Source of the DNA: Xanthomonas floridensis
GTDB taxonomy: Bacteria > Pseudomonadota > Gammaproteobacteria > Xanthomonadales > Xanthomonadaceae
Length of the DNA: 64,000 bases
Direction: 5' to 3'
NCBI RefSeq assembly: GCF_001642575.1
Contig: NZ_LXNG01000004.1
Coordinates: 62,001-126,000 of the forward strand
Shown here: positions 25,792-41,922 of the stretch, one piece after another
Layout: each line of letters opens with the position of its first letter
Position numbering within the stretch: the stretch's first letter is position 1
The notes under the pieces: generated by a model
Told to the model about the DNA's origin: nothing
The model's database searches: none
The model's input: the letters and a program-made list of their open reading frames with translations, nothing else
Translations under genes and position numbers: made by a program

Positions 25792-25914
25792 CCATCAGCC
25801 ATCAGCCACCAGCCACCAGCCATCAGCCATCAACCACCAGCCATCAGCCATCAACCACCAGCCACCAGCCACCAGCCACCAGCCACCAGCCACCAGCCAC
25901 CAGCCACCAGCCAC
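25792..25914. repeat. Heptamer tandem array, 17 copies of ccaycar
   Basis: Seventeen full 7-base units plus four bases. The units are ccaccag, ccatcag and ccatcaa; the right half is a pure run of ccaccag and the left half is mixed. Heptamer arrays of this type are known as variable-number repeats in xanthomonads. It lies about 60 bases before the tRNA-Arg gene. Confidence 0.93.
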
Positions 25915-25973
25915 GCTTGCTGGGGGGGCAGGCATCACGCGGAGGCACGGGTTCTGGCATACTGCGCGGCCAG

Positions 25974-26050
25974 GCGCTCGTAGCTCAGCCGGATAGAGTA
26001 GTGGCTTCCGAAGCCATTGGTCGGGGGTTCGAATCCCTCCGGGCGCACCA
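25974..26050 (+). tRNA. tRNA-Arg (anticodon CCG), CCA encoded
   Basis: The acceptor stem GCGCTCG/CGGGCGC closes with one U-G pair, followed by A and an encoded CCA. The anticodon stem-loop is gtggc-ttccgaa-gccat with CCG at positions 34-36, so it reads CGG. The T arm has ggttcgaatcc. The 3' half is a usual attachment site for P4-type integrases, and a decayed integrase lies 165 bases downstream. Confidence 0.95.
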
Positions 26051-26082
26051 GATGACCCCTCCAGGGACGTCCAAGAAAGTCC

Positions 26083-26110
26083 AAAACCCCCGAGAAATCG
26101 GGGGTTTTTT
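26083..26110 (+). terminator. Intrinsic terminator after tRNA-Arg
   Basis: AAAACCCCCGA and TCGGGGGTTTT form an 11-bp stem around GAAA, with two further T residues. It lies 32 bases past the CCA end. Confidence 0.85.
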
Positions 26111-26215
26111 GTTGCCTGCCAGTCCTGCAAGGTCCACCCTAATTCCATTGAAATCCAGGCCGATCGGGGGCATGGATGGGGGGCACCAGCCCCTAGCAGT
26201 GATAGGGATGCCCCC

Positions 26216-26805
26216 ATGCCCTGAAGTGACGCAGCAATACCCAGTGCAAAGCCGGCCACCAAGCCCGTGAGGCTGTTCGATGCGGCGGCTTATACGTCGA
26301 GATCTCGCCGAAGGGCGCCAAGCTCTGGCGATGGAAGTATCGATTCGGCGGTAGGGAGAAGCGCTTAGCGCTGCGGGTCTACCCAGAGGTCAGCCTGGCA
26401 CAGGCGCGAGCTCAGCATCTAAAGGTACGCAAAGTCCTTCGGTCAGGCATTGACCCAGGTGAGAAGAGAAGGGTCGACAGGCTTATTCGCGTTGATCGGT
26501 CCCCGCTCAGCCTTGCAGCTGTCGCTGCAGAACTCCTGAACCTGCATGGCAAGAAGAACTCGGTCCTGACGATGAAGCGCAATGGCAGAATCGTCGAAAA
26601 GGACCTCAACCCCTATCTAGGGCATAGGCCTATCGCTAAGATCTCTGCGCCGGAGCTTCTAGCGGTCCTGCGCAAGATAGAAATGCGTGGCGCCATTGAG
26701 ACAGCGCATCGCGCTCGGGGCATTGCCAGCATGGTGTTTCGATACGCCATCACCGCAGGCAAGGCTCAGTGTGACCCGGCTGCCGATCTTTTTTGGGCGC
26801 GGTAG
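26216..26805 (+). pseudogene. P4-type tyrosine integrase remnant
   Basis: From an ATG at 26216 the frame reads like a P4-family integrase start (SDAAIPSAKPATKPVRLFDA), but codon 3 is TGA. After GAT-GC at about 26283 one base is missing. The sequence then continues in another frame as the arm-binding domain (GGLYVEISPKGAKLWRWKYR, then REKRLALRVYPEVSLAQAR) and the core-binding domain up to CDPAADL at about 26790. There the match stops and the catalytic domain is absent. So one nonsense change, one frameshift and a 3' truncation have destroyed the gene. Confidence 0.88.
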
Positions 26806-28087
26806 CCGCAATGCTGTTGACCGCTTGCGCAAGCGCCTGCATGTGGGCGACTGGGGTGAATGTCTGCGGTGTGACGCGAATGCAGGCGCCGCTGGCCAAG
26901 TCGTTGCGGACCACGGTGAAGATGCCGTAGTCCCGCTGAAGTCGCCTTTGCAGGGCATTGACTTGCTCCTTGGAAGCCTGCCCACGCAGGCGGAAGCCGC
27001 CCATGCCCGAAGCGTTGTGCACGCTGGTGGCGCCAAGCACTTCGACGTTCGATGCATCTTTCAATTCGCTTACCCAGGCTTGCTGCAGATAGTTCAGCCG
27101 CGCTTGCTTGTTGGCCCCGCCAATGGCCCGGTGGAACGCCAGGGCATCGGGCACCGTCAGGAACGCGGCGAAGTCCGAGGTGGCTAGATGCACGCGATTG
27201 GCGACATCGCCATCGCCGGCATCTTCGCCTGGGAAAGGCATCACCGGCGCCAGGGTGCCTTCGCGCATGTACAACGCACCCACGCCAACCGGCGATCCGA
27301 TCCACTTGTGCAGATTGAACACGGCCCAGTCGACGTCGAGATCGTCGCGCTTGAAGTCCAGCAAGCCCCAGGACTGGGCGCAGTCGCAGATCACATGGAT
27401 GCCTCGTTGCCGTGCGATCGCGGCGATCTTCCTGACCGGAAGCACCAGCCCATGCTGGTTGCTGACATGGGTCAGCAGAATCAGCTTCAGGTTGGGATGT
27501 GCGTCGAACGCCTGTTGGTAGGCAGCGAGATAGTCGTCATCGGCTCCTGTGGCGGGAAGAGCAAGCATGTGGCCTTCGACACCGCGACTGCGTGCCAGCC
27601 ACGCCATCATTCGCTTGAATTCCGGGTAGTCGGCATCGGCCCACAGGATCGCATCGCCGGCCGTCAGACCGTTGTACTGCGTGATCAGGTTGACGAAGGA
27701 CTCGGTGGCATTTCGGGTGAGCATCAATTCGTTGGTCTTGACGCCCAGCGCGGCGGCCACCGCGGTGCGTGCCGCCAGGAAATCGCGGTCGTAGTCACGG
27801 CGTGCGTACCAGGAAAGTTCTCTGTTGACCTTGTGCGTGTTGCGCGCAAGCGCTTCCTCGACCGGCGTGGCCATCTTCCCCCAATAACCATGCTCGAGGT
27901 TGATGATGTCGTCCTGCACCGGGTACAGCGCCCGCACCGCCTGCCAGTGCGCTTCGTCTTGCGCGAGCAACTGCGGCGACTTGGTCGAGACAGGTACATC
28001 ACGCAGCGCTGTGGGAGCAGCATCAACGACCAGGGACGAAGCGGCGATTGAAGCCGACAGCTGGAGAAAACGCCTTCGGTTTGCCAT
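26750..28087 (-). CDS. Tat-exported PvdN-like PLP enzyme (aminotransferase class V)
   Basis: A 445-residue protein. The N-terminus MANRRRFLQLSASIAASS is a twin-arginine signal, so the folded enzyme is likely exported. The rest is a class V aminotransferase/isopenicillin-N-epimerase fold: TRNATES at about 124-130, CDCAQSWG (Asp235) and FNLHKWIGSP with the PLP lysine Lys261. Tat signal plus this fold resembles PvdN, the periplasmic enzyme that alters the pyoverdine side chain. The last 12 or so residues are read antisense through the integrase remnant, so the original C-terminus was probably replaced. Confidence 0.82.
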   Translation of the reverse strand: MANRRRFLQLSASIAASSLVVDAAPTALRDVPVSTKSPQLLAQDEAHWQAVRALYPVQDDIINLEHGYWGKMATPVEEALARNTHKVNRELSWYARRDYDRDFLAARTAVAAALGVKTNELMLTRNATESFVNLITQYNGLTAGDAILWADADYPEFKRMMAWLARSRGVEGHMLALPATGADDDYLAAYQQAFDAHPNLKLILLTHVSNQHGLVLPVRKIAAIARQRGIHVICDCAQSWGLLDFKRDDLDVDWAVFNLHKWIGSPVGVGALYMREGTLAPVMPFPGEDAGDGDVANRVHLATSDFAAFLTVPDALAFHRAIGGANKQARLNYLQQAWVSELKDASNVEVLGATSVHNASGMGGFRLRGQASKEQVNALQRRLQRDYGIFTVVRNDLASGACIRVTPQTFTPVAHMQALAQAVNSIAATAPKKDRQPGHTEPCLR

Positions 28088-28294
28088 GGAGATCCTCTGC
28101 AGTGAAAGTGTCGCATCAGCACGATAGCGGGCAGCACACGTCCTGGACACGCCGCGCATGGAATTTTTTTGGATGACGTCATCTGGCTTGAAGACATGCA
28201 GCATGAGGCGGTGTCGCGCACGGCGGGCATCGGCTGGCAGGCGCGACCCAAGCGCCGCCGCCGGGAGCGTGCTCCATGGTCTAGACTACCGACC

Positions 28295-28759
28295 ATGCTG
28301 CGCCACCCACGCTTCTTGCAGGTCATGCACCGGCTCGCCCTGATGGGCGCGCTGCTGATGGCCGTTGCGCCGGTGGTCAGCCGCTGGATGCAGCCGGACG
28401 CGGAGGCGGATCGACTGCGTCAGTTGACCGATCTGTGCACCAGCGGTGGCCTGCAGCAGCTCGAGGCGGGCGCGGTCATGGCATCGGCGCACGCTGCGCA
28501 CATGATGTCGATGGACTTGGCGATGTCCGGCATGGGCCACGGCGACGCCGGAACCCTGTCGGTCGATCACCGCGATGGCATGGCCTGCGATTACTGCGTT
28601 CTCGCAGCGAATTTGCTGCCCTTCCTGCTGCTAGTGCTACTGCTGCCCTTGTTGCAGCAGGCAATGACGCAGCCTCCGGCATTGCGGACCGTGCCGTTCG
28701 GAGCGAGCGCGTGGCCGGCCCATGGCGCACGCGGCCCGCCGGACGCCCTGCCAGCCTGA
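28295..28759 (+). CDS. DUF2946-family membrane protein
   Basis: A 154-residue protein with an N-terminal hydrophobic helix, a His/Met-rich middle (HAAHMMSMD, then MGHGDAG), CDYCVLAANLLP and a second Leu-rich helix. The Cys/His/Met pattern and the CDYC motif fit DUF2946, a family often found next to TonB-dependent receptors and copper genes. It is divergent from the PvdN-like gene across about 200 bases. The ATG at 28295 is preferred; a longer frame from 28169 lacks conserved features. Confidence 0.7.
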   Translation: MLRHPRFLQVMHRLALMGALLMAVAPVVSRWMQPDAEADRLRQLTDLCTSGGLQQLEAGAVMASAHAAHMMSMDLAMSGMGHGDAGTLSVDHRDGMACDYCVLAANLLPFLLLVLLLPLLQQAMTQPPALRTVPFGASAWPAHGARGPPDALPA

Positions 28760-29096
28760 TCCTGCTGGTCTTGGCTTGCTTGCGCTTGGTCGCCGGCAGT
28801 CCGTGTTCGCATCTGCTGCTCTGCCGTCGCCGATGATCCGACCGCGGCGACGCATCGTGCCGCCGCACTTGAGCGGTGCGTGTGGTTGCGCTCGCTAAGT
28901 CGAGTTCGGCTAGTGGGGCATTGCCGGCAACGCCTGCGGTTTGGATGCGACCTCACTTGAAACGCTGTACGCCGATGTCGCGGTGCGGTTGCGCATGGCG
29001 CATGGCGCGTTGGGATGGCATTCCACGCGAATGACGTTCTGCCTGCGCGCGCGCTTCGGGGCATGCGGCGTCTCGACACAAGGTCGAAAAAATCTC
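28760..29096. other. Intergenic stretch before the deleted TonB receptor
   Basis: About 340 bases with no gene recognised. A frame continuous with the receptor remnant extends upstream to 28941, but its translation shows no signal peptide or family motif. Confidence 0.4.
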
Positions 29097-29603
29097 ATGA
29101 AGACGACATTGGGATGCCTGCTGATGGCCGGAGCCGTGCAGCATGCCGCTGCCCAGGACGCCACGCAGCTGCCGGCGGTGCAGGTGATCGGCGATTACGC
29201 CGCCGACAAGGCAAACAGCACGACCCAGGCGGAGATCGCGCTGGCCGATTACCCCGCCTCGATCCAGGTGGTGCCCTCGGAGGTGCTGCGGGATCGCGGC
29301 GTGACACGCACCGAGCAACTGATGGACAACGTCAGCGGCGTGCATGCCGAAGCCAGTTACGGAGGCAACGGCGCCACGTTCTTCAATATCGGTACGCGGC
29401 AGGCCACGCTGCCCCACACGTTCCAGCTGTCGGGCGATACCCGCACGGACGCGATGGTGTCCTACGCGCGAGGTCCGTGGACCACGCAGCTCAATCTGCT
29501 CAATGTCTTCGACCGCAGGTTCTACGTGGGCGGCTCTGCCGGCGTTTTCAACTACCCCCTGACGCCGAATGCGCCTGCGACAGCGCAGTTGACGCTGCCC
29601 TAG
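29097..29603 (+). pseudogene. TonB-dependent receptor with an in-frame internal deletion
   Basis: The 168 codons encode a signal peptide (MKTTLGCLLMAGAVQHAAA), the first half of a TonB-receptor plug (ASIQVVPSEVLRDRGVTRTE, GVHAEASYGGNGATFFNI), and then directly the last barrel strands (RQATLPHTFQLSGDTRTDAM, NLLNVFDRRFYVGG). A normal receptor has roughly 500 residues between these parts. The frame is kept, but the rest of the plug and most of the barrel are gone, and the final aromatic strand is cut short (ends QLTLP). It cannot act as a receptor. Confidence 0.88.
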
Positions 29604-29878
29604 CGCTTCGCCGACTGAGTGCGCCGTGGTGGTTTGCCTGGCTGTGCCACTCGACCTAGGCGTTGCTTCCCTCTCTCCCTTTGAGCTCTACGATGACACA
29701 CGAGACATCCTTGAATATCGCCAGCATGGTGGCGTGGCCCTGGTTGGCACCTGCAGCGCTTGCCGAAAGCAGCGGCGCACCGACGGCACAGTGTGCGACT
29801 GACCAGATGCCCGGTTGGACACTGACGCCGGCGGACCGGCGCTACCGCGGCACCGGATCCCGTTTCAACGCTCTATCC

Positions 29879-32095
29879 ATGACGATCTCCCGATGTGCAT
29901 CAGGCAGGCTGCCTCAGAGCGCAGTTCTTCTGTTGAGCATCAGCGGTTCTTGCGTGTCGACAGCCTACGCACAGGCAGATACCCAGCCACCTGCTGAAGC
30001 CACCACACTGGACACGCTGAAGGTGCAGGGACAGCGCGAGCGACTGCTGGATGCGCCGGCAACCGTCGGCAGTCGGTTGGGCCTGACGCAACGACAGACG
30101 CCGGCGTCGCTGCAAGTCATCGATCAGGGCGACATCGCCAGGCAGGGAGCACGCACCACCAGCGAAGTGTTCGACATGGTTGCCGGCGCCATGGTCGGCA
30201 ATGTCCCGGGCAACCCGGCGGTGGTCACGATGCGCGGGTTCAGCGGTAACACGGTGTCGGTCCTGCACGACGGCGTGCGGCTTGGCACCTCGACGATCGT
30301 GACCCGCAACCTGGACACGTTCGGACTGGAACGTGTCGAAGTGCTGCGCGGCCCGGCGTCTGTGCTGTATGGCGAAGGCGCCCTGGGCGGGGTCATCAAC
30401 CTGGTGAGCCGCAAACCGCAACTGGGCGCACCCTCCATGGAAGGCATGCTCGGGCTCGGCAGTTTCAACACCTGGCGAGGCGGGTTTGATGTCAACAAGC
30501 CGATCTCGGACACCGTCGCCGTTCGTGGGTTCGTCAGCCGATTGCGCTCCGACAGCCTGAATGACATCGACAACAACCAGACGGATCTGTTGACGGTCGG
30601 TGGCAGCCTGTTATGGCGTCCCGGCACCGGGGTGGCGATGCTGTTCTCTTTCGAGCACGCCGAGGACGACAGCACCGGCACCTATCAGGGCTCCCCGATG
30701 GTGCCGGCGGATGTCGCCCGATCGCCGAGTCATGTCGTCCGTAGCACGAGTGGCTTGGTCGTCGACAAGGCAACACGTCACCTCAACTACAACCCGTTGG
30801 GCGCAACCAGCGGTGCCAAGAGCGACCTGTTGCGCTGGCGCATGGATCTTCCGCTGGGCAATAACTGGTCGCTGCAGAACGACTTGAGCTGGTATCAGGC
30901 CGATCGGGATTTCTTCTATTCCGATAACTGGATCTACAACCGCGCGAGCGGGCAGTTCTCGCGCACCGCTGAGCGAATCCGGCACGATCAGCGGTTCTGG
31001 AACGAACGGCTTGCGCTGTCGTTCGACGGCCAGGTGGGCGGGCATCGCAACCGGTTCACCACAGGGGTGGAGCACAACGACACCGATTTCTACAACCCGC
31101 GGCAAACCGGGGTGACCACGCCTGTGTCGCTGCTCGACCCGCAGCTTGGCGTATTCCCGGATGGAGCGGCGGGCAACTTCCCCGGCGCAGGCAACAACGT
31201 GATCTTCGACTCCCGCCTTCGCACCTCGGCGGTGTTCGCCGAGAACGCGCTCAACCTGACAGACCGCTGGATACTGCTCGCTGGCGCGCGCTTTGAAAAG
31301 ATCGCGCTGTCGCGTGATATTCGCGATCTGAACACCGGCAGTGCCGAGTCGTTTCGTCCCGACTACAGCCCCTTTTCCTGGCGGGTGGGCACGGTGTTCG
31401 ACCTGACCCCAGACGTTCAGGTGTATGGGCAATACGCCACTGCGGTGAGTCCTGTTTCTACCCTGCTGACCATGCGCCCGGCCGCTGGCGTGTTCGACCT
31501 CAGCAAGGGGACGTCGCTTGAAGCAGGCGTCAAGGCGAGCGCATGGGACAAGCGCGTGGAGCTGACGGCGGCGGCCTATCGGATCGAGCGGGACAACATC
31601 CTCACCCGCGATCCAGCCAACCCGAGCATCAGTGTCCAGGGTGGCGAGCAGTCTTCCCAGGGTGTGGAGTTCTCTGCGCAAGCCCAGATGACGCGGGGGT
31701 TGCGACTGGATCTTGCGGCCGCTTACGGCACCGCGCGCTACGACCGGCTGCTGGAAGTCGGTGGCGCCGACCGCAGTGGCAACCGGCCCATCAATGTTCC
31801 CAACGGCACGGCTTCCCTGGCAGCCAGCTACCGTTTCCCGAGCGTTCCGCTGTCGATCGGAGCATCCGGTCGCAACGTCGGCGGTTTCTACACCGACAAC
31901 GCCAACACCATTCATGTCCGTGGATACACGAGCTTCGATGCATGGGTGGGCTACGACTGGCAGCGGGTATCGGCGGTGCTGCGCGTGCGCAATCTGTCGG
32001 ACGAACTTTACGGAACCTATTCCGGTTATCCGTCCACCCACATCTACCTTGGCGCGCCCCGCAGCGTTGAGCTGACCCTGCGCACCCGGTTCTGA
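29879..32095 (+). CDS. TonB-dependent siderophore receptor
   Basis: A 738-residue receptor starting with a signal peptide (MTISRCASGR, hydrophobic core, cleavage near AYA-QA). A TonB-box-like DTLKVQG follows. The plug has LGLTQRQTPASLQVIDQGDI, TMRGFSGNTVSVLHDGVRLG and ERVEVLRGPASVLYGEGALG, and the barrel ends in TLRTRF with terminal Phe. It would move a ferric siderophore or similar chelate across the outer membrane. An open frame extends upstream to 29663, but the signal peptide marks 29879. The PepSY gene starts 2 bases after its stop. Confidence 0.9.
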   Translation: MTISRCASGRLPQSAVLLLSISGSCVSTAYAQADTQPPAEATTLDTLKVQGQRERLLDAPATVGSRLGLTQRQTPASLQVIDQGDIARQGARTTSEVFDMVAGAMVGNVPGNPAVVTMRGFSGNTVSVLHDGVRLGTSTIVTRNLDTFGLERVEVLRGPASVLYGEGALGGVINLVSRKPQLGAPSMEGMLGLGSFNTWRGGFDVNKPISDTVAVRGFVSRLRSDSLNDIDNNQTDLLTVGGSLLWRPGTGVAMLFSFEHAEDDSTGTYQGSPMVPADVARSPSHVVRSTSGLVVDKATRHLNYNPLGATSGAKSDLLRWRMDLPLGNNWSLQNDLSWYQADRDFFYSDNWIYNRASGQFSRTAERIRHDQRFWNERLALSFDGQVGGHRNRFTTGVEHNDTDFYNPRQTGVTTPVSLLDPQLGVFPDGAAGNFPGAGNNVIFDSRLRTSAVFAENALNLTDRWILLAGARFEKIALSRDIRDLNTGSAESFRPDYSPFSWRVGTVFDLTPDVQVYGQYATAVSPVSTLLTMRPAAGVFDLSKGTSLEAGVKASAWDKRVELTAAAYRIERDNILTRDPANPSISVQGGEQSSQGVEFSAQAQMTRGLRLDLAAAYGTARYDRLLEVGGADRSGNRPINVPNGTASLAASYRFPSVPLSIGASGRNVGGFYTDNANTIHVRGYTSFDAWVGYDWQRVSAVLRVRNLSDELYGTYSGYPSTHIYLGAPRSVELTLRTRF

Positions 32096-32096
32096 C

Positions 32097-33536
32097 ATGG
32101 ACCGAGACCGCATTCCCGGCCCGGCAGACGTCCGGCTTGCCGAAGCAGGCCGACGAGACCTGCATCGCCTGTTCTGGCGGTGGCACCTCTACGCCGGCCT
32201 GTTTGTCGCTCCCTTCGTGTTGATGCTGGCAGTGACCGGTGCGATCTACCTGTTCAACGACGAATTGAACGATGCGATCTATCCGCACCTGCGCTTCACC
32301 CCGGCCCCCTGGAAGCAGCGATCCTCACTCGGGAGCATGATCGATGCGGCGCAAGCGCAGGTTCCGCAGAGCACGGCAACGCGGATCGATGTGCCCACCG
32401 ACCCGCAACGGCCCGCCCAGGTCTATCTGGATGTTGCCGACGCCCCCAGCCAGATCGCCTTCGTCAATCCGGCCGACCATCGCGTGCTGGGCACGTTGGT
32501 GCCCTCCCGGACATTGGTGGGACTCGCCGACCGTCTGCATGGTTCGTTGATGCTCGGCACTGCAGGCAGCTATCTGATCGAGCTGGCCGCCTGCTGGGCG
32601 GTGTTGCTCCTTCTGAGCGGGCTGTATCTGGGGTGGCCACGTGGCAAAGGGCACGCCTGGTGGCATGGCGTGGTCCCGGATCTACATGCCAGGGGGCGCG
32701 CCTTCTGGACGTCGCTCCACGCAGCGACCGGGGTTTGGGTCTGCCTGCTGGTGTTGTTCCTGATCTTCACCGGCCTTCCCTGGGCATCGTTCTGGGGTGA
32801 CTGGGTGCGCCGCGGTGCAGAGGCGATCGACGCAGGCTACCCGCCGGTCTATCGGCGTTACGTCACACCGACTGCGCCGACGGTCGGGACGGCATTCAAC
32901 GACGTCCCATGGACGCTGCAGCATGCACCGATGCCACCCGCCGACGCCGCTGCCGACCCGGTGCATTCGCATCACGCACCCCATCCCACCCCGACCCCGG
33001 GCGCTGCACGCCAGTGGACCGATGCAGGCCTGGAACGCGCGATCGCGCACGTCCGCGCTGCGGGCACGGCCGATCCGCTGCGGGTGTTCCTGCCCAGCAC
33101 GCAACGCGGTGCGCTGATGGTCTACACCTACCCGGACCGGCCCCAAGGGCAGGTCACCTATCACTTCGATACGCAGGGCAAGCTGCTGGTTCGGGCCGGC
33201 TTCGACGACTACGGCGGCGTCGCCCAGGCCATCGAGATGGGCGTGCAGTTGCACATGGGCAACTACTTCGGCCGTGCAAACCAGTTGGTCATGCTGTGTG
33301 CCTGCGTCGGCATCGTCGTTCTCTGTGTCTCGGGAATGGTGATGTGGTGGCGCCGCAAGCCGGCGGGCCGCATCGGCGCGCCCGGATCCGATCGCCGCAT
33401 GCCATTTCGCTGGCTGCTCGGCTTGGCCGTCGCAACGGCCATTGCGCTCCCGCTCCTGTTCGTGTCGCTGCTCGTCGTGGGGGCGTTCGATCGCTGGATC
33501 AGACCCCGATCACGCCTGTTCCGATGGCTGGACTGA
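32097..33536 (+). CDS. PepSY-associated membrane protein
   Basis: A 479-residue inner-membrane protein. The first helix follows RLFWRWHLYAGLFVAPFVL, and FNDELND begins a periplasmic PepSY region. Further helices are near 160-180 and 215-235, and two more are in the C-terminal third; several His lie at membrane borders. This layout is shared by PepSY transmembrane proteins encoded next to TonB siderophore receptors, proposed to reduce ferric siderophores. It begins 2 bases after the receptor stop, so the two are almost surely cotranscribed. Confidence 0.87.
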   Translation: MDRDRIPGPADVRLAEAGRRDLHRLFWRWHLYAGLFVAPFVLMLAVTGAIYLFNDELNDAIYPHLRFTPAPWKQRSSLGSMIDAAQAQVPQSTATRIDVPTDPQRPAQVYLDVADAPSQIAFVNPADHRVLGTLVPSRTLVGLADRLHGSLMLGTAGSYLIELAACWAVLLLLSGLYLGWPRGKGHAWWHGVVPDLHARGRAFWTSLHAATGVWVCLLVLFLIFTGLPWASFWGDWVRRGAEAIDAGYPPVYRRYVTPTAPTVGTAFNDVPWTLQHAPMPPADAAADPVHSHHAPHPTPTPGAARQWTDAGLERAIAHVRAAGTADPLRVFLPSTQRGALMVYTYPDRPQGQVTYHFDTQGKLLVRAGFDDYGGVAQAIEMGVQLHMGNYFGRANQLVMLCACVGIVVLCVSGMVMWWRRKPAGRIGAPGSDRRMPFRWLLGLAVATAIALPLLFVSLLVVGAFDRWIRPRSRLFRWLD

Positions 33537-33612
33537 CGCGCCGCGCGGATTCGCATCGCCCGCTTGTCGGGCATTCCGGGAGCCTCGCTCCCACAGTGCT
33601 GAGGAAAAAATC

Positions 33613-34320
33613 ATGAAACGACTCGCCCTTACGTCCCTGTTTGCGGCCGCATTGCTGGTCATTGCCGGCACGGCATCTGCTGCACAGCCCGCCCAGCCGC
33701 CGTTTTCGTTGCCCGCGCTGCCCTATGCCAACAACGCGCTGGAACCGGCAATCGATGCTCGCACGATGGAGATCCATCACGATAAGCATCACAAGGCCTA
33801 CGTGGACAACCTCAACGCCAAGGTGAAGGACTTCCCCGCCTTGGCCACCACCTCGTTGGAAGAGATCCAGGCCAGCGTGTCGCGGTATGACGCTGCGGTG
33901 CGCAACAACGCGGGCGGTCATTACAACCACAGTCTGTTCTGGACGCTGATGGCGCCCGTGGGTAAAGGCGGCAATCCGTCGCCGGCGCTGCAAGCGAAAC
34001 TCGTGCAGACCTTTGGTTCCCAGCAGGCATTCCAGACCAAGTTCGCCGAGGCGGCGAGCAAGCTCTTCGGATCAGGCTGGGCCTGGTTGATCGTCAAACC
34101 GGACGGCTCGCTCGCCATCACCACCACGCCCAACCAGGACAACCCACTGATGGACGTGGTTGCCGAGCGGGGCACCCCGTTGCTGGCGCTGGATGTCTGG
34201 GAACACGCCTACTACCTGCATTACCAGAACAAGCGCGCCGACTACATCAAGGCATGGTGGCCGCTGGTCAACTGGAATCAGGTCAACGCCCGCTATGACG
34301 CTGCTGCGGGAAAGCGCTGA
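33613..34320 (+). CDS. Exported Mn-type superoxide dismutase
   Basis: A 235-residue Fe/Mn superoxide dismutase with an added signal peptide (MKRLALTSLF, hydrophobic core, cleavage near ASA-AQ). All four metal ligands are visible: His55 (EIHHDKHH), His106 (NHSLFW), Asp194 and His198 (LDVWEHAY). AGGHYNH and TPNQDNPLM (Gln175) are the Mn-type choices at positions that separate Mn from Fe enzymes. Export to the periplasm is unusual for this family. An AGGA-type RBS precedes the ATG. It follows the PepSY gene by 76 bases. Confidence 0.92.
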   Translation: MKRLALTSLFAAALLVIAGTASAAQPAQPPFSLPALPYANNALEPAIDARTMEIHHDKHHKAYVDNLNAKVKDFPALATTSLEEIQASVSRYDAAVRNNAGGHYNHSLFWTLMAPVGKGGNPSPALQAKLVQTFGSQQAFQTKFAEAASKLFGSGWAWLIVKPDGSLAITTTPNQDNPLMDVVAERGTPLLALDVWEHAYYLHYQNKRADYIKAWWPLVNWNQVNARYDAAAGKR

Positions 34321-34473
34321 CTGTTGCTCGATTCCTGGTCGTGACGCTGCGCAGACCTCTCGCGACGCGCGTCGGCCCCTTGGCCGCTCGCCAACCCAGT
34401 GCAGCCTCGGCGCAGCAACCTGCTAGCCCACGACCGTTTTGTCGACGCCTACGCCATCCACATCGAACCCGTC

Positions 34474-36612
34474 ATGACCCAGAAAACGATTTTGAATGCC
34501 GCACTCCTGTTGGCGATCGCATGCACCCTGCCTGCGGCGTATGCCGAGGAGGCAGCCGCACAAACCGCAACGGACGACACTGATGCCGCGCCCAGTTGGA
34601 CGCTCAAACCGGTCGAGGTCACCGCCACGCGTGGCCTGTATACGAGCTCCACGACCTCGGCAGCCACCCGCACCGACACCCCGCTGCTCGAAGTGCCGCA
34701 GTCGGTCCAGATCATCACCCGCGCGCTGCTGCAGGAGCAGGATCGGCGCACGCTGGGCGAGGCGCTGGTCAACGTATCGGGCGTCACGCCGACGCGTTCG
34801 GACGAGAACCTGTTCATTCCGCCCATCGTGCGCGGCTTTCCGGCCGAGGTGTACCTGGACGGGTTGCCGCTGTTCGCCGGCAACCAGCAGGCCTACGATC
34901 CCATCGGCATGGTCGGCATTGCCAGCATCACCGTGCTCAAGGGGCCGAGCGCGACGCTCTATGGCGGGGGGCTGGGCACGCCGCTGGGTGGGGTAATCAA
35001 CATCCAGAGCGAGCGCCCGGATCCCACCGCGCCACGCGGCGATGTGGCGATGCGCGCGGGCAGCTTTTCGACCTGGAATCCGTCTGCCGACATCAACGTG
35101 CCGCTGTCCTCCACTGTCACGGCCAGGATCGCCGGCGAATACCAGCGCAACGACAGCTGGATCGACAAGGTTCACGGCAAGCGCTGGTCCCTGCAGCCCA
35201 GCCTGCTGTTCCGGATCGATGCCGACACCGACCTGCTGCTGCAAGGCCAGTTCAATCGTCGCAGCGCGCTGGAGTACTCCGGGCTGCCGGCTGACGCGGC
35301 GCTGGCCGGTCTTCTGGACCGCGATGCGTTCCCGGGCTCGCCCAACGGCCAGCCGTTGACCAGCAACAGGAGCCAGATGGGCACGGCCACCTTGCGTCAC
35401 GCCTTTTCCGATCGGGTGACGCTCAGCGTGACCGCGCGCTACTACCACGGCAAGGTCGATGAAAGTGGCAGCTTCGTTTATCCAGGCCTGGCCGGGACCG
35501 ACACCATGGCGCCGGACTACGACGTCTTCCCGATCTCGATGGTGAACCGCACCAAGGAGGCGACGCTCGATGCCAATCTTTCGGCCAAGCTCGAGATGCT
35601 GGGCGGGACGCACACGCTGCTGGGCGGCATCAACTACGACTGGACCAGCTTTTATAGCGGCATGGGCCTGTTCGTCAGCGGCAGTCCCTCCGGCACGATC
35701 GACCTTGCAACTCCCCGCTACGATCTGAGGTATACGGCGCAGCTTCCGGTCAACTCCTATACCGACGACCGCTTCACGACCGTCGCCGGTTATGTCCAGG
35801 ACCAGGCGACCTACGGTCGCCTGCATCTGACCGGGGGCGTGCGTCTGACCTCGCTGACGTTCGTCGAGAACAGCAACATCGGCGTGGCAAACGACAAGAC
35901 CTACTCGCATGTTTCGCCGCGCATCGGTGCGACGTTCGATGTCGTGCCAGGCGTTGCCTTATACGCAGGCTATGCCACCGCGTTTCGTGCACCGTTCGGC
36001 TTCATTGGCCTGGCCACGCCCGAGCCGGAGACGTCCAGTAACCTCGAGGGCGGCATGAAGCTCTCGCTGCCCGCAACCGGCCTGTCGGGCACCATCGCGA
36101 TGTTCCGGCAGAAGCGTGAGGATGTCGCAATTTCCGACCCGAACAATGCGGGGTACTTCATCCAGAGTGGGCGCCAGCGCGCACGCGGTGTGGAAGTGGA
36201 CATGGTGTGGGAGCCCAGCCCGGCCTTCTCGCTGTTGGCCAACTACGCGCATACCGACACGCGCGATGAAGACCTGGCGCCGGGCGATCGGATCGCGCGG
36301 GTGCCCGACAACAGCGGCCGGCTTGCCGCACGCTATCGACTGCTCAATGGCCCGGCCAGGGGGCTGGCCTTCGGTGCCGGCGTCACCGCGTTCAGTGCAC
36401 GGGACATCACGCTGCCCAATACCATCGCGGTGCCTGGATATGCCGCCATCGATGCACAGGCGTCCTACGACATCGGCCGATGCACGCTTGGTCTGGCGCT
36501 GGTCAACCTGAGCGGGCGTAAAGCCTGGGATCCCTATTCGTACATGGGCTATCCGGTCGTCGCACCCAACCAGCCGCGCTCGGCATATGCCACCCTCAAG
36601 GTGGATCTCTAA
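34474..36612 (+). CDS. Second intact TonB-dependent siderophore receptor
   Basis: A 712-residue receptor. The signal peptide runs from MTQKTILN to about AYA-EE; PVEVTATRG is TonB-box-like. The plug has TPLLEVPQSVQIITRALLQE, PIVRGFPAEVYLDGLPL and SITVLKGPSATLYGGGLGTP. The barrel ends in YATLKVDL. The pattern fits ferric-siderophore receptors of the FhuA/FpvA class. The ATG at 34474 is the only start that gives a proper signal peptide. The esterase gene starts 3 bases after its stop. Confidence 0.9.
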   Translation: MTQKTILNAALLLAIACTLPAAYAEEAAAQTATDDTDAAPSWTLKPVEVTATRGLYTSSTTSAATRTDTPLLEVPQSVQIITRALLQEQDRRTLGEALVNVSGVTPTRSDENLFIPPIVRGFPAEVYLDGLPLFAGNQQAYDPIGMVGIASITVLKGPSATLYGGGLGTPLGGVINIQSERPDPTAPRGDVAMRAGSFSTWNPSADINVPLSSTVTARIAGEYQRNDSWIDKVHGKRWSLQPSLLFRIDADTDLLLQGQFNRRSALEYSGLPADAALAGLLDRDAFPGSPNGQPLTSNRSQMGTATLRHAFSDRVTLSVTARYYHGKVDESGSFVYPGLAGTDTMAPDYDVFPISMVNRTKEATLDANLSAKLEMLGGTHTLLGGINYDWTSFYSGMGLFVSGSPSGTIDLATPRYDLRYTAQLPVNSYTDDRFTTVAGYVQDQATYGRLHLTGGVRLTSLTFVENSNIGVANDKTYSHVSPRIGATFDVVPGVALYAGYATAFRAPFGFIGLATPEPETSSNLEGGMKLSLPATGLSGTIAMFRQKREDVAISDPNNAGYFIQSGRQRARGVEVDMVWEPSPAFSLLANYAHTDTRDEDLAPGDRIARVPDNSGRLAARYRLLNGPARGLAFGAGVTAFSARDITLPNTIAVPGYAAIDAQASYDIGRCTLGLALVNLSGRKAWDPYSYMGYPVVAPNQPRSAYATLKVDL

Positions 36613-36615
36613 GTG

Positions 36616-37686
36616 ATGAAATCTCTGGGATGCTGGCTTGCCGTGGCCGGCTTGAGTGCGCTGTCTGCATGGTTGTCGCCACTGGCCTGTGCGCAGGTGT
36701 CAGCAGCCGGCTCGACGATCATTCCGCTGCAGCCGGCAGCAACTTCAGCGTCGACGGGCGTGCCCGAGCAGCACGACACGCTGGAGACGGGCGAAACGCT
36801 GATCTACGACGTCAGCGTGCCGACGCTAGAACTGTTCCGTCCAGCGCCTGATCGGATGAACGGCACCGCGGTGATCGTCGTACCGGGCGGCGGATTTGTC
36901 GCTCTTGGCTACACCTTCGGTGGCACCGAGGTGGCGCGTGCACTGGCCGAGCGTGGCATCACGGCTTTTGTGCTGAAACATCGGACGATCCGCAGCGGCG
37001 ATGGCCCGATGCGCATTCCCGCCGTCCACATGAAGGAAATGGAGCTGGTCATGTCACGTGCCAAGCGCGGAACACCTCTCGAGATGCCGGCCTTTGCCGG
37101 CGAGCCGCACGCGATCGAGGATGGCGCGCGGGCGATGGCGCTGGTGCGACAACGCGCCGCTGAGTGGGGGATCGACCCGCACCGAGTCGGCGTTGTCGGA
37201 TTTTCGAGCGGCGCCTATCTCGCGGCCGATCTTGCGATTGGGCCGGAAGCCGCACGCCCGGACTTTGTCGGCTTGATCTACGGCGGTTTGCGCCTGCCTG
37301 TGCCTGCCGGCGCTTCTCCGGCATTTATCGCCGGCGCCGCCGACGATGCCTACCAGCCGAACGATCCCATCCTTCTCTATAGCGCATGGCGCAAGGCCGG
37401 CGTGGAGGCCGAGTTGCATCTCTATGCGCGTGGTGGCCACGGCTTCGATCTCCATCCCAAAGGCACGACCAGTGATCACTGGTTCGAGGAGTTCCTTTGG
37501 TGGATGCAGGCGCGGGGCTTGCTGGCGAATTCCACTCCGATTCGCAACACTGTTGAGGACCTCCTCGGTGAAGACTTCGAGGGGCGTTTCGAATCCAAGT
37601 ATCTTGCGCGGACGATCGTAGAGCCGCTGTTCGATCCATCGCAGGTGCGCATCGGTGATGCTGCTGAAATCGGCCTGCCGAGGTAA
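36616..37686 (+). CDS. Exported alpha/beta hydrolase with a replaced C-terminus
   Basis: 356 codons. A signal peptide (cleavage near ACA-QV) is followed by VVPGGGFVALGY (oxyanion region), GFSSGA with nucleophile Ser197, and GGHGFDLH with the catalytic His. This is the acetyl-esterase/xylan-esterase-like group. It is coupled to the TonB receptor (3-base gap), so it may cleave an imported or outer-membrane-processed ester such as a siderophore. The natural protein seems to end near WWMQARGLLA; the last 50 or so residues are read antisense through an IS30-type transposase remnant. Confidence 0.8.
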   Translation: MKSLGCWLAVAGLSALSAWLSPLACAQVSAAGSTIIPLQPAATSASTGVPEQHDTLETGETLIYDVSVPTLELFRPAPDRMNGTAVIVVPGGGFVALGYTFGGTEVARALAERGITAFVLKHRTIRSGDGPMRIPAVHMKEMELVMSRAKRGTPLEMPAFAGEPHAIEDGARAMALVRQRAAEWGIDPHRVGVVGFSSGAYLAADLAIGPEAARPDFVGLIYGGLRLPVPAGASPAFIAGAADDAYQPNDPILLYSAWRKAGVEAELHLYARGGHGFDLHPKGTTSDHWFEEFLWWMQARGLLANSTPIRNTVEDLLGEDFEGRFESKYLARTIVEPLFDPSQVRIGDAAEIGLPR

Positions 37687-37770
37687 GTACTGGCGTGTCA
37701 GCCCGTTGGCATTTTCGTTGCTGCCGCGCTGCCATGCGCAGTATGGAATCGACGTCCCGGCTTCATATAA
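37543..37770 (-). pseudogene. IS30-family transposase remnant (C-terminal part)
   Basis: On the minus strand about 70 codons match the end of IS30-type transposases: PYCAWQRGSNENANGLTRQY, then LPRQADFSSITDAHLRWIEQ, RLYDRPRKILGFETPLEVF and VLNSVA. The catalytic Glu region WQRGSNEN is present but the DNA-binding and first catalytic parts are missing. To the left the frame runs into antisense esterase sequence at about 37530-37543. It is the scar of an insertion that cut the esterase gene. Confidence 0.85.
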
Positions 37771-37922
37771 CGCATGTCGGCGGTATCGTTCCAACAGGTC
37801 CAGGCGGCTGGATGACGTGGGCAACTCCACTTGGCGGCGAAGTCGCTCAGGTCAGGTCGCCTGGACCACTTCATTACCGTTGGGGTTGCGTCCAGAGTTG
37901 AAGCCGCCGACCTATACCACCT

Positions 37923-37950
37923 ACGGGAAGCGAGATGCCTCGCTTCCCGT
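37923..37950. terminator. Perfect 12-bp hairpin, possible terminator
   Basis: ACGGGAAGCGAG and CTCGCTTCCCGT are perfect arms around ATGC. Only three T residues follow on the plus strand, so termination is uncertain. It lies between the IS30 remnant and a possible small membrane-protein gene. Confidence 0.5.
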
Positions 37951-37990
37951 TTGATGCTCCGCATTGCAGTGCAAGCTTTGGATGCACGTA

Positions 37991-38116
37991 ATGATGAAGA
38001 GCAAGGTCGAGTTGATCTCCTGCATCGTGGTGGTGGCCACAGCCGTCATGGCGGGCATCGTCAAATGCATGGTAGCGGCTACTTGCCCCAACTGCAGTGA
38101 TTTCTTCGATCACTGA
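37991..38116 (+). CDS. Possible 41-residue membrane protein
   Basis: A short frame reads MMKSKVELISCIVVVATAVM and continues with one hydrophobic stretch of about 25 residues, then a CPNC pair and an acidic end (SDFFDH). Most third codon positions are G or C, as in real genes here. A weak GGA lies about 10 bases upstream; an in-frame ATG at 37982 is an alternative start. I do not recognise a family. It may be a real small protein of the accessory region or chance. Confidence 0.3.
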   Translation: MMKSKVELISCIVVVATAVMAGIVKCMVAATCPNCSDFFDH

Positions 38117-38171
38117 TCAGTAGAAGCATCGCAGCAGTGCAGGTGCGACAGCGTCTGTCCACACTCCGATG

Positions 38172-38651: not shown

Positions 38652-39042
38652 AGCGTGTCTCCTTCGCGGTCATCCACTGCGTCTGCCGCAGCGGTAGTTC
38701 GATTCTGCGATAGCCCGGTGTTGCCGCGAGGTGACAAGGCGTCGCATGTTCATGCGCGGGTTGGCTGCGTGGGGGGAGGTGAAAGTGGTGCACGAGACCT
38801 AGCGAGCAGGTGCCGGGGGGTGTGGGCAGCGTACTCAGGTCCAAGCATGCACGGGGCCATGAGGATTGCGAACAGCGGCCGCGCCCGCCTGGAGATGCGC
38901 AGCAGGTATGACAGTGGTTTCCGATGCCGCACGCCCTTCATGCCCTGGATGCGGCATGGCTTGCCTGGCACGTTAGCGCCGGTAATTGCTCCTTAGTCCA
39001 TAGTTCCTACCCCCCTAGCTCTCAGGCCCCAGTTCCCAGTCC
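38652..39042. other. Intergenic stretch, no gene seen
   Basis: About 390 bases before the heptamer array; with the array and its right flank the gap before the channel gene is about 765 bases. Reading frames are short and motif-free. The promoter of the HPF-like gene lies at the left edge. Confidence 0.5.
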
Positions 39043-39126
39043 CCAACCTCCAACCTCCAACCTCCAACCTCCAACCTCCAACCTCCAACCTCCAGCCTCC
39101 AGCCTCCAGCCTCCAGCCTTCAGCCT
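39043..39126. repeat. Heptamer tandem array, 12 copies of ccarcct
   Basis: Seven copies of ccaacct are followed by four of ccagcct and one tcagcct. The switch from A to G at the same unit position shows that the variants spread in blocks. It is a second long heptamer array 13 kb from the one at 25792. It lies about 290 bases upstream of the channel gene. Confidence 0.92.
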
Positions 39127-39417: not shown

Positions 39418-41922
39418 ATGCCGGCACCGCGCGGCTGCGCGCCTGCCAGATGCCTGACCGTGTCCCAATTCCGCTTCGCCCCGTCTGCCGGTTCGAGCCT
39501 GTTGCTGCGTGTAGTGCTGTGCTGCGGCCTTTGGTTGGTGTGCGCCGGCGGTGCGCTGGCCCAGGACGAAGTCACGCTGCTGGAGACTGCGCAGACCCAG
39601 CTGGATAACGCGCAGAAGGTGCTGGACCAGGGCGAGGCCGGGCTGGAAAAAGCCAATACCGACCTGCTGCGTGAGCTGACCGACCAGGTCACCGCGACGC
39701 AACGGCAAACCCAGGATCTGGCACGTCAGCTGGATTCGCCGCTCAAGCAACTGAGCGTGCGCCTGGACGGCTTGGGGGTGGAGCAAAAGACCGACCCGGT
39801 GGATCTGAAAAAACAGCGCAAGGCGCTGGCGGATGAAAAAAACACGCTGGACGCGCAACTCAAGCGCGCCAATCTGCTCGCCTCCGAAGCGGGTGACCTT
39901 GCCGAACGCCTGGAACACAAGCGCGCGCAGCTGTTCAGTGTGCAGCTGTCCACGCGCGTTGCCTCGCCATTATCGCCGGCGTTGTGGACCCGGATCGCCC
40001 AGCAGTGGCCGGACGACCGTGCGCGATTGCAGGCCCTGAGCGACGAGGCGGCCCAGGTCCTGCGTGCCGGCATTGCCGCAAAAGGCGTCGGCGGGCTGGT
40101 GACCGGCGCGGTGATTGCGCTGCTGCTGGTATTTCCGCTGCGCATCTTCCTGCGCCATCTCGGCCGGCGTTATGCGGCGTCGCGCGCGCCGGGCGGGCGG
40201 CTGCGGCGCTCCGGACTGGCCCTGTGGTTTCTGCTGGTCGGCATCATCAGTTTGGGCACGGCAGCCTGGGTACTGGCCGAAAGCGTGCGTGCAATCGCCG
40301 AGGTGCCGGCCGATCTGGATGAGTTGCTGGATGCGCTGGTCATCATCAGCTTCATCGCGGCCTTTGTCGGTTCGCTCAGCGCCAGCCTGTTGATGAAGCA
40401 TCAACCCAGCTGGCGGTTGTTCCCGCTGGATGACGCCACAGTCGATCGGTTGCGTGTGCATTGCCTGGCCACCGCTGCGGTGAGCTGGTGCAGTGGCATG
40501 GCGATCAAGATCAACGAGGTGGCGCGCACCAGTAGCGCGGCGGCCACCGCTACCGATGCGGTGGCGGCCCTGTTGTATGCCGGGCTGATCCTCTCGGCCC
40601 TTGCCGGGCTGAGCCTGTCGTTGCGCGCGCGCGCTGCCAGTGCCGGAGCGGCCGGCGCCGACAGCAGCGAGCCGCCGCCGGTGGTGTCGCGTGGCGGTGG
40701 GGTCATCGTGCTGATCCGCCTGCTGGGGCATGTGGCGGTGATCGTGTCGTTGCTGGCGGCCTTGTTTGGGTATCTCAACCTGTCGTTGTTCATTGCACGC
40801 CAGATCATCTGGATCACCCTGATTTGCAGTCTGCTCGGGCTGCTGGTGGTGTTCGCTGACGATCTGTTGACCTGGGTCTTCAAGCCCGAAGGTCGTTTCA
40901 GCAGGGCGCTTTCGCACGCGCTCAGCATCGGCAGCGGCCGCCTGGTGCAGCTGGGCCTGCTGATGTCGGCAGCGGTGCGCGTGCTGCTGGTGCTGCTGGC
41001 CCTCGCCGTACTGCTGACGCCCTACGGCGGCAATATCAGCCTGATTACCGGTTGGGTGGAGAACATCACCCACGGCATCTCGATCAGCAAGGAACTGGTG
41101 ATCACGCCCGGCGATGTGGTGCGGGCGCTCTGCGTGTTCCTGCTCGGCATGGGGCTGGTGCACGTGGTGCAGCAGTGGCTGCTCAACACCTATCTGCCCA
41201 AGACCGAGCTGGATGCGGGAGCGCGCAATTCGATCAGCACGGTGGCGCGCTATCTCGGCTGGCTGGTGGTCGTGGTGTGGGGATTGACTGCGCTGGGCCT
41301 GGACCTGAAGCGGCTGGCGCTGGTGTTGAGTGCACTGTCGGTGGGTATTGGGTTTGGCCTGCAGGCGATCACGCAGAACTTCGTCTCCGGCCTGATCCTG
41401 CTCGCCGAGCGGCCGGTCAAGATCGGCGATTGGGTGCGGATCGGCGATCAGGAAGGCGATGTGCGCAGGATCAGCGTGCGCGCGACCGAGATCCAGGTGG
41501 GCGATCGTTCCACCCTGATCGTGCCCAACTCGGAGCTGATCACCAAAAGCGTGCGCAACATGACGCTCTCCAACCCGATGGGCCGCGTGCAACTGCAGTT
41601 CTCGGTGCCGCTGGAAGCCGATGCGGCCAAGGTGCGCGACATGCTGCTGACCCTGTTTGCCGAACATGCCAAGGTGCTGGCCGAGCCGGCGCCCTCGGTA
41701 TTCATCGATTCGCTGGCCGGCGGCCACATCAACTTCAACTCGTTCGCCTACGTGAGTAGCCCGCGCGATTCGTACGGTGTGCGCAGCGAACTGTTCTTCG
41801 CGCTATTGCAACGCATGGACGGCGCCGGCATCGCGTTGCAATCGCCGCAGGAAATCCGCTTCAGCCGTGCAGGCGCTGCCGTGGCGCGCGATGGCGGCGA
41901 GGAGACGCCTGCACAGGGGTGA
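39418..41922 (+). CDS. MscK/MscS-type mechanosensitive channel with DUF3772 domain
   Basis: An 834-residue protein. A signal peptide (cleavage near ALA-QD) is followed by a charged coiled-coil-like periplasmic region of the DUF3772 type. About ten transmembrane helices come next. The MscS core follows with LSVGIGFGLQAITQNFVSGL, LLAERPVKIGDWVRIGDQEG and TLIVPNSELITKSVRN. It would open under membrane tension to release solutes. The ATG at 39418 has a GGAGG about 10 bases upstream; a GTG at 39460 is possible. Confidence 0.9.
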   Translation: MPAPRGCAPARCLTVSQFRFAPSAGSSLLLRVVLCCGLWLVCAGGALAQDEVTLLETAQTQLDNAQKVLDQGEAGLEKANTDLLRELTDQVTATQRQTQDLARQLDSPLKQLSVRLDGLGVEQKTDPVDLKKQRKALADEKNTLDAQLKRANLLASEAGDLAERLEHKRAQLFSVQLSTRVASPLSPALWTRIAQQWPDDRARLQALSDEAAQVLRAGIAAKGVGGLVTGAVIALLLVFPLRIFLRHLGRRYAASRAPGGRLRRSGLALWFLLVGIISLGTAAWVLAESVRAIAEVPADLDELLDALVIISFIAAFVGSLSASLLMKHQPSWRLFPLDDATVDRLRVHCLATAAVSWCSGMAIKINEVARTSSAAATATDAVAALLYAGLILSALAGLSLSLRARAASAGAAGADSSEPPPVVSRGGGVIVLIRLLGHVAVIVSLLAALFGYLNLSLFIARQIIWITLICSLLGLLVVFADDLLTWVFKPEGRFSRALSHALSIGSGRLVQLGLLMSAAVRVLLVLLALAVLLTPYGGNISLITGWVENITHGISISKELVITPGDVVRALCVFLLGMGLVHVVQQWLLNTYLPKTELDAGARNSISTVARYLGWLVVVVWGLTALGLDLKRLALVLSALSVGIGFGLQAITQNFVSGLILLAERPVKIGDWVRIGDQEGDVRRISVRATEIQVGDRSTLIVPNSELITKSVRNMTLSNPMGRVQLQFSVPLEADAAKVRDMLLTLFAEHAKVLAEPAPSVFIDSLAGGHINFNSFAYVSSPRDSYGVRSELFFALLQRMDGAGIALQSPQEIRFSRAGAAVARDGGEETPAQG

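What the first reader, a model, noticed from the sequence alone, without database searches (positions are those of the whole stretch)
26216..37770. Metal-uptake locus bounded by two different mobile-element scars that cut the outermost genes
Between tRNA-Arg(CCG) with a dead P4-type integrase on the left and an IS30-type remnant on the right lies a block of TonB receptors, a PepSY protein, an exported SOD, a Tat PLP enzyme and an esterase. The leftmost and rightmost genes both point outwards, and both read their last codons antisense through the remnant. This looks like an island trimmed from both sides, keeping an uptake cargo without any way to move.
Basis: partly seen in the sequence, partly recalled or inferred. 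Interest (0 to 1): 0.75.

Follow-up and report, generated by a model that had tools for sequence, protein, structure and literature searches.

The report
Stranded copper-uptake island in Xanthomonas
A block of metal-uptake genes that probably scavenge copper sits next to a tRNA gene where mobile DNA often lands in this genus of plant bacteria; its movement genes have decayed down to the last codons of the outermost cargo genes, which look intact, so this is a well-preserved example of a known process.

Summary
tRNA-Arg(CCG) to MscK is an integration hotspot: of 35 genus genomes, 25 keep it on one contig, 12 of these with 0.7-1.0 kb (empty) and 13 with 2-42 kb of varied DNA. Left scar: integrase codons 1-208 with a nonsense codon and a frameshift, catalytic domain gone; relative G025 keeps an intact 418-aa copy there. 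Right scar: an IS30 with both ends but 669 bp missing inside, then 0.2 kb of another mobile element. No second att copy was found, so the block should not excise. The outermost genes are barely cut: the PLP enzyme lost only its stop codon, the esterase about three codons. Beyond the reading, the cargo is best explained as copper acquisition: a CruR-type DUF2946 leader, a receptor closest to CrtA (9RVQ) with its essential histidine, and a PepSY_TM protein. X. nasturtii carries the block elsewhere, beside SCO1; G010 and G012 carry decayed or partial versions in this hotspot; a Sphingomonas plasmid carries a related set. The parts differ in age, so a single arrival is not shown. Ordinary biology, unusually readable.

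The parts
25974..26050 (+). tRNA-Arg(CCG), the integration target
   Evidence: ARAGORN; Rfam; a match in 35 of 35 genus genomes
26040..26118 (+). tRNA 3' end plus downstream repeat; the segment that recurs as a second att copy in G031, G033 and (weaker, shifted) G001, G012; one copy found in the window
   Evidence: no second copy in the window beyond chance with the 17-base tRNA 3' end at up to 3 mismatches
26180..26799 (+). dead tyrosine integrase remnant: codons 1-208 of 418, one nonsense codon, one frameshift, catalytic domain absent
26750..28087 (-). Tat-type PLP enzyme (Aminotran_5, PvdN-like); homologous part ends at about 26798, last about 15 residues antisense to the integrase remnant
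28310..28759 (+). DUF2946 protein, CruR-type copper-responsive leader (CDYC, 44 residues, RGPP)
   Evidence: PMC9426467
29097..29603 (+). third TonB receptor reduced by a large internal deletion to its N-terminal plug part fused to its last strands, still an open frame
29879..32095 (+). TonB-dependent receptor 1, CrtA-like (copper); start corrected from X. nasturtii
32097..33536 (+). PepSY_TM protein (FoxB/CrpH-like), four haem-ligand His aligned
33613..34320 (+). Fe/Mn superoxide dismutase with signal-like N terminus
34399..36612 (+). TonB-dependent siderophore-type receptor 2
   Evidence: 72% to a Sphingomonas plasmid protein
36613..37686 (+). alpha/beta hydrolase (esterase); homologous part ends at 37523, last about 53 residues antisense to IS30 transposase
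37524..37908 (-). IS30-type element with both ends and imperfect terminal inverted repeats, 669 bp missing inside; only copy found in this genome
37910..38131 (+). fragment of another mobile element: segment found upstream of a TIGR03299 phage/plasmid-like gene at G000:C23 and G037:C45
38310..38651 (-). flanking core gene, S30AE/HPF-like
   Evidence: next to the empty site in 12 genomes
39418..41922 (+). flanking core gene, mechanosensitive channel

Best explanation
This is the remains of mobile DNA at a tRNA-Arg(CCG) hotspot. A tyrosine-integrase element entered the tRNA 3' end (inferred from intact relatives). It lost the catalytic half of its integrase and its far att site, and an IS30 copy, itself deleted inside, now stands where the DNA beyond the last cargo gene should be. 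Loss from both sides stopped at the last codons of the outermost cargo genes, most simply because selection kept the cargo (inferred). Whether the cargo came with the integrase or joined later is left open. The cargo most likely takes up chelated copper: a DUF2946 leader peptide senses copper and controls the operon, a CrtA-like receptor (and possibly receptor 2) brings in the metal chelate, and the PepSY_TM protein reduces it at the inner membrane. The exported SOD, esterase and Tat PLP enzyme would act in the periplasm. What these three do is inferred only: the esterase and PLP enzyme may process the chelator, and the Fe/Mn SOD may spare copper.
For: Hotspot and empty sites. Integrase of near full length without stops at the same place in G025, G001 and G033 (in G034 with one stop). 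Dead integrase in the window. No second att copy found. IS30 with both ends and internal deletion, no other copy found in the own genome. Outer genes nearly complete. dN/dS 0.09-0.16 for six of six cargo genes compared with X. nasturtii (DUF2946 and the third receptor remnant were not compared), core MscK 0.135. Cargo GC 64.5% against a mean of 67.2% (minimum 65.2%) in 61 overlapping windows of the same size elsewhere in the 64 kb. Cargo elsewhere: X. nasturtii, 82.7% over 7.7 kb, beside SCO1; G010 with DUF2946, receptor 3, part of receptor 2, PCuAC and SCO1 next to HPF/MscK; G012 with the PLP gene on the MscK side; Sphingomonas insulae mobilizable plasmid. Copper: best PDB match of receptor 1 is CrtA, E 1.8e-85 against 1.6e-45 for the next; essential His kept; DUF2946 motifs and spacing.
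Against: Pairwise dN/dS mixes all history since the split and does not prove present function; the dS of the PLP gene is near saturation. Two of the CrtA site residues (Trp, Tyr) are changed and two more do not align cleanly. Receptor 2 is nearest to FoxA/CntO-type receptors, not to a copper receptor. DUF2946 is common in the genus, 33 of 35 genomes, and the plasmid version lacks CXXC. The third receptor is deleted. The relative with the intact integrase holds none of the cargo, and PLP (dS 2.1) and esterase (dS 1.2) are more diverged than their neighbours, so one arrival is not shown. No expression or copper data.
Confidence: 0.68

Rival explanations
1. The cargo was not brought by this integrase. 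It entered, in one or more steps, a tRNA-Arg element that was already resident, by illegitimate recombination on the left and IS30 activity on the right. (A sub-question that the best explanation leaves open.)
For: Same integrase without this cargo in G025; cargo elsewhere in X. nasturtii, no tRNA found on its 19.7-kb contig; mosaic dS; short shared GGGCGC at the left junction (by eye).
Against: G010 and G012 carry related genes in the same hotspot, which suggests that such cargo travels to this site repeatedly.
Confidence: 0.4
2. The cargo takes up iron through xenosiderophores, not copper: receptor 2 with PepSY_TM reductase, PvdN-like enzyme and esterase handle a ferric siderophore.
For: Both receptors pass the TonB-siderophor model; receptor 2 nearest to FoxA/CntO; PepSY_TM matches FoxB weakly; PLP enzyme matches PvdN over its length.
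Against: DUF2946 leader with the copper motifs; receptor 1 nearest to CrtA by a wide margin; SCO1 and PCuAC neighbours in relatives.
Confidence: 0.3
3. The block is decaying as a whole and no longer works; intact frames reflect recent arrival.
For: Third receptor deleted; outer genes carry antisense tails; the related set in G010 is broken.
Against: Six large frames open; dN/dS 0.09-0.16; both scars stop at gene ends.
Confidence: 0.2

Closest known systems
tRNA-associated genomic islands of Xanthomonas, such as XVR18 (integrase, tRNA-Arg, IS elements) in PMC2246292
   Same: tRNA-Arg, integrase, IS elements, variable among strains (passages of the paper)
   Different: the cargo listed there is plasmid mobilization and hemolysin activation; whether it is the same tRNA-Arg was not tested
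CruR-CrtA-CrpH copper operon of Bordetella pertussis (PMC9426467 passages; PMC12914433 abstract, sections 4, 7, 23 and passages; PMC13038864 abstract and sections 20, 21)
   Same: DUF2946 with CXXC and a C-terminal R-x-P-P motif, CrtA-like receptor, PepSY_TM protein, same order
   Different: RGPP instead of RAPP; a deleted third receptor between leader and CrtA-like receptor; added SOD, second receptor, esterase, divergent PLP enzyme; some binding-site residues changed; lies in a decayed island
Xanthomonas nasturtii WHRI 8853, contig NZ_LYMI01000053.1
   Same: receptor 1, PepSY_TM, SOD, receptor 2 and esterase in the same order, plus the PLP gene
   Different: another genome place, beside SCO1 and DUF2946; extra 876-aa receptor between; complete outer genes; its own tRNA-Arg site is empty
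Sphingomonas insulae plasmid NZ_CP048423.1
   Same: receptor 2 (72%), esterase (74%), receptor 1 (48%) by tblastn; DUF2946 and PepSY by annotation
   Different: different order; mobilizable plasmid; its PepSY matches the window's only weakly (E 1.5e-5) and its DUF2946 not at all at E <= 1e-3; no SOD or PLP match in the 20.5 of 36.2 kb looked at

Membership tests
tRNA-borne genomic island | starts at a tRNA 3' end and is absent in relatives | tested here: met
   12 of 25 contiguous sites empty
tRNA-borne genomic island | site-specific integrase beside the tRNA | tested here: met
   present only as a dead remnant; intact in a relative
tRNA-borne genomic island | direct repeat of the tRNA end at the far side | tested here: not met
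   present in G031, G033, G001, G012. It is filed as the remains of such an island, not as a complete one
tRNA-borne genomic island | composition differs from the host | tested here: met
   against the rest of the 64-kb window only
IS30 family | IS30-type transposase and terminal inverted repeats | tested here: met
CruR (DUF2946) copper leader | CXXC and C-terminal RAPP about 45 residues apart | tested here: met
   CDYC, 44 residues, RGPP; G in place of A, RGPP invariant in 5 of 5 aligned, CXXC in 4 of 5
CruR (DUF2946) copper leader | heads an operon with receptor and PepSY_TM after a long gap | tested here: met
   about 340 bp to the next frame by coordinates; same-strand genes follow; transcription not tested
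CruR (DUF2946) copper leader | copper-dependent control of downstream genes | not testable with these tools
   needs expression data
CrtA copper receptor | closest to CrtA among solved receptors | tested here: met
CrtA copper receptor | invariant His358 | tested here: met
   positions counted by hand; also His in X. nasturtii and Sphingomonas
CrtA copper receptor | other five conserved site residues | tested here: inconclusive
   E337 to D; W265 to Q and Y130 to T changed; Q356 and R395 at or beside gaps
CrtA copper receptor | membership of the CrtA similarity cluster | not tested
   network not available
PepSY_TM metal reductase (CrpH/FoxB) | four haem-ligand His in membrane segments | tested here: met
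   aligned with 7ABW, whole match E 2.3e-6, second part weak; which His of FoxB bind haem was not looked up residue by residue
PvdN | NCBIfam NF051467 score above cut-off | tested here: not met
   83.9 bits, cut-off 650; only PvdN-like

The most novel reading that the evidence does not exclude
A travelling copper-acquisition cassette: a CruR-controlled CrtA-CrpH set enlarged by a second receptor, an esterase, a Tat PLP enzyme and an exported Fe/Mn superoxide dismutase that may spare copper, moving between plasmids of Alphaproteobacteria and chromosomal sites of Xanthomonas, and kept after its vehicle died. That would be an island for getting copper, in a genus whose reported mobile copper genes (titles and abstract starts) serve resistance.
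Probability: 0.3. Interest if true: 0.6.

Novelty: new member of a known kind. Interest (0 to 1): 0.4.

Why it matters
It shows how a horizontally acquired block becomes a fixed part of a chromosome: movement parts erode to within a few codons of the outermost genes while the cargo frames stay open. It also suggests that copper acquisition, not only copper resistance, is mobile among plant-associated bacteria, which is directly testable.

Tried and rejected
Searched for a second att copy in the window: nothing beyond chance. Searched for other copies of the IS30 in the own genome: none at E <= 0.001, all 35 candidates scored (in one search only 14 of 42 were scored). Took the extra receptor of X. 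nasturtii as the parent of the window's receptor remnant; rejected, no match there at E <= 1e-3; the parent type is in G010. Looked for the cargo on plasmids: no record above 60% identity to receptor 1 (29 records, E <= 1e-50) or to the PLP enzyme (8 records, E <= 1e-40); receptor 2 and esterase were not searched there on their own. Looked for PLP relatives with the same neighbours: 3 of 368 other genomes of the class matched at E <= 1e-60; 16.6-18 kb around each held no other cargo gene except two weak matches in one (a receptor piece, E 1.4e-7, and an esterase piece, E 3e-4). G679 has receptor 2 (64%) and esterase (57%) side by side; otherwise only weak receptor matches (about 26%) in 20 kb. 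The only match of the cargo to G025's island (E 9e-6) is the antisense tail of the PLP frame on the integrase. Rfam found only the tRNA in 24-42 kb at gathering scores. DUF2946 alone is not specific: 33 of 35 genus genomes have it and the window's genome has four. Misassembly as the source of the right scar: unlikely, since no other copy of that IS30 was found here. Structure prediction was not used. No test was made of how likely both scars are to fall at gene ends by chance.
Full report
Observation. The tRNA-Arg(CCG) gene is at 25974-26050. A tyrosine integrase remnant follows. Against the 418-aa integrase of relative G025 it covers residues 2-35 with a stop codon, then, after a frameshift, residues 37-208 at 91% identity, and ends at 26799. 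Pfam places the catalytic domain of the G025 protein at residues 239-371, all missing here. DNA matches to five relatives (G025, G031, G010, G001, G012) end at 26800 and to two (G033, G034) at 26805, while the integrase match continues past that point in G025, G001, G033, G034 and G010. It has no stop in G025, G001 and G033, one in G034, four in G010; G031's copy is in two pieces and G012's contig ends there. On the right, 37524-37747 and 37748-37908 match the two ends of an IS30-type element in G030 whose middle 669 bp are absent here; that element has a 322-aa transposase frame. The next stretch, 37910-38131, is 85% identical to a segment upstream of a TIGR03299 phage/plasmid-like gene at another place of the same genome and in X. 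nasturtii.

Outer genes. X. nasturtii homologues show where the outer genes should end. The PLP homologue aligns to its last residue at 26798; the esterase DNA homology stops at 37523, three to four residues before the homologue's end. So 'cut' should be 'stop codon replaced'. The PLP ORF gains about 15 residues and the esterase about 53, both antisense to the mobile genes.

Hotspot. Over 35 genomes of the genus, the window's own included, tRNA-Arg and the MscK-like gene were both found in all 35. In 25 they lie on one contig: 12 with 0.7-1.0 kb between, 13 (the window's included) with 2-42 kb; in 10 they lie on different contigs and were not counted. None of the 12 empty sites matches the cargo. 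Receptor 1 has a relative above 37% identity, at E <= 1e-100, in 1 of 34 other genus genomes: X. nasturtii (named through its contig, same length of 19,674). There the cluster lies on another contig, next to DNA that is 80-85% identical to a region of the window's own genome with SCO1, while its tRNA-Arg site is empty. In G010 the MscK end of the region carries DUF2946, the third receptor (split over two frames), part of receptor 2, PCuAC and SCO1; the tRNA end is on another contig. In G012 the MscK contig carries the PLP gene next to a second att copy; its tRNA is on another contig too. Repeats of the tRNA end also lie on the far side in G031, G033 and G001, but none was found in the window.

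Cargo. Pfam and NCBIfam give TonB siderophore-type receptors, PepSY_TM, Fe/Mn SOD, an alpha/beta hydrolase and a class-V aminotransferase fold. Signals fit export: a twin-arginine start in the PLP enzyme, also in its X. nasturtii and G012 relatives, and a signal-like N terminus of the SOD (read by eye, no predictor run). The DUF2946 protein has CDYC and RGPP 44 residues apart. PMC9426467 (passages read) describes CXXC and RAPP 45 residues apart in a copper-sensing leader that heads operons of a TonB receptor and a PepSY_TM protein. Receptor 1 is closest in the PDB to 9RVQ (E 1.8e-85, next 1.6e-45), which PMC12914433 (abstract, sections 4, 7 and 23, and passages read) deposits as CrtA, a receptor for chelated copper with one essential histidine. 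That histidine aligns; E337 is D; W265 and Y130 are changed; two others are unclear. PMC13038864 (abstract and sections 20 and 21 read) describes the PepSY_TM partner CrpH; four histidines align with histidines of FoxB. The window's genome has another DUF2946 gene beside a receptor 32% identical to receptor 1.

Age and selection. dN/dS between window and X. nasturtii is 0.09-0.16 for six of six cargo genes compared, core MscK 0.135. dS is 0.32 (SOD), 0.56, 0.60 and 0.74 (receptor 1, PepSY, receptor 2), 1.2 (esterase) and 2.1 (PLP, near saturation), against 0.70 for MscK and 0.49 for HPF. The middle block is thus about as diverged as the core genes or less, while the two outer genes are more diverged. 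The block looks assembled from parts. Receptor 2 (72%), esterase (74%) and receptor 1 (48%) also lie together on a mobilizable plasmid of Sphingomonas insulae, with an annotated DUF2946 and PepSY that match the window's weakly or not at all, so the kit itself appears mobile.

What is shown and what is inferred. Shown: hotspot, empty sites, dead integrase, internally deleted IS30, no second att copy found, nearly complete outer genes, open cargo frames, copper-type motifs. Inferred: that selection set the edges, that the cargo still works, that the metal is copper, and that the island came as one piece. The literature searches showed no paper on this cluster in Xanthomonas among the titles listed; the lists were capped (15 of 16, 15 of 27, 10 of 470, 10 of 43, 10 of 28, 10 of 26, 4 of 4) and only the papers named above were opened, plus passages of PMC3826837 and PMC2246292, which describe tRNA-Arg insertions in the genus.

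Verdict. A real, decayed tRNA island with a preserved, probably copper-acquiring cargo. Known kind of thing, good example.

Noticed in passing
L029:4092-5949 (G039, same tRNA-Arg hotspot): The same hotspot in another species carries an MbnB/TglH/ChrH-type RiPP enzyme and a DUF2063 partner, perhaps another metal-related cargo.
   Followed up: partly
window 28941-29603: A TonB receptor gene with about 1.5 kb deleted inside, compared with G010, still reads as one open frame directly after the DUF2946 leader; an out-of-frame loss might have been polar on the operon.
   Followed up: partly
G000:C34 (L075): The same genome has a second DUF2946 next to a CrtA-like receptor (32% to receptor 1) close to SCO1, so copper uptake may be redundant.
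   Followed up: partly
L026:1972-8043 (G025): The intact island of the relative has two identical, oppositely oriented IS30-like frames set among methyltransferase-like fragments (names by eye, the first fragment has no Pfam match).
   Followed up: no
window 25800-25915 and 39040-39120: Short, degenerate head-to-tail repeats on both sides of the region (CAGCCAC type and CCAACCT type), seen in the sequence.
   Followed up: no
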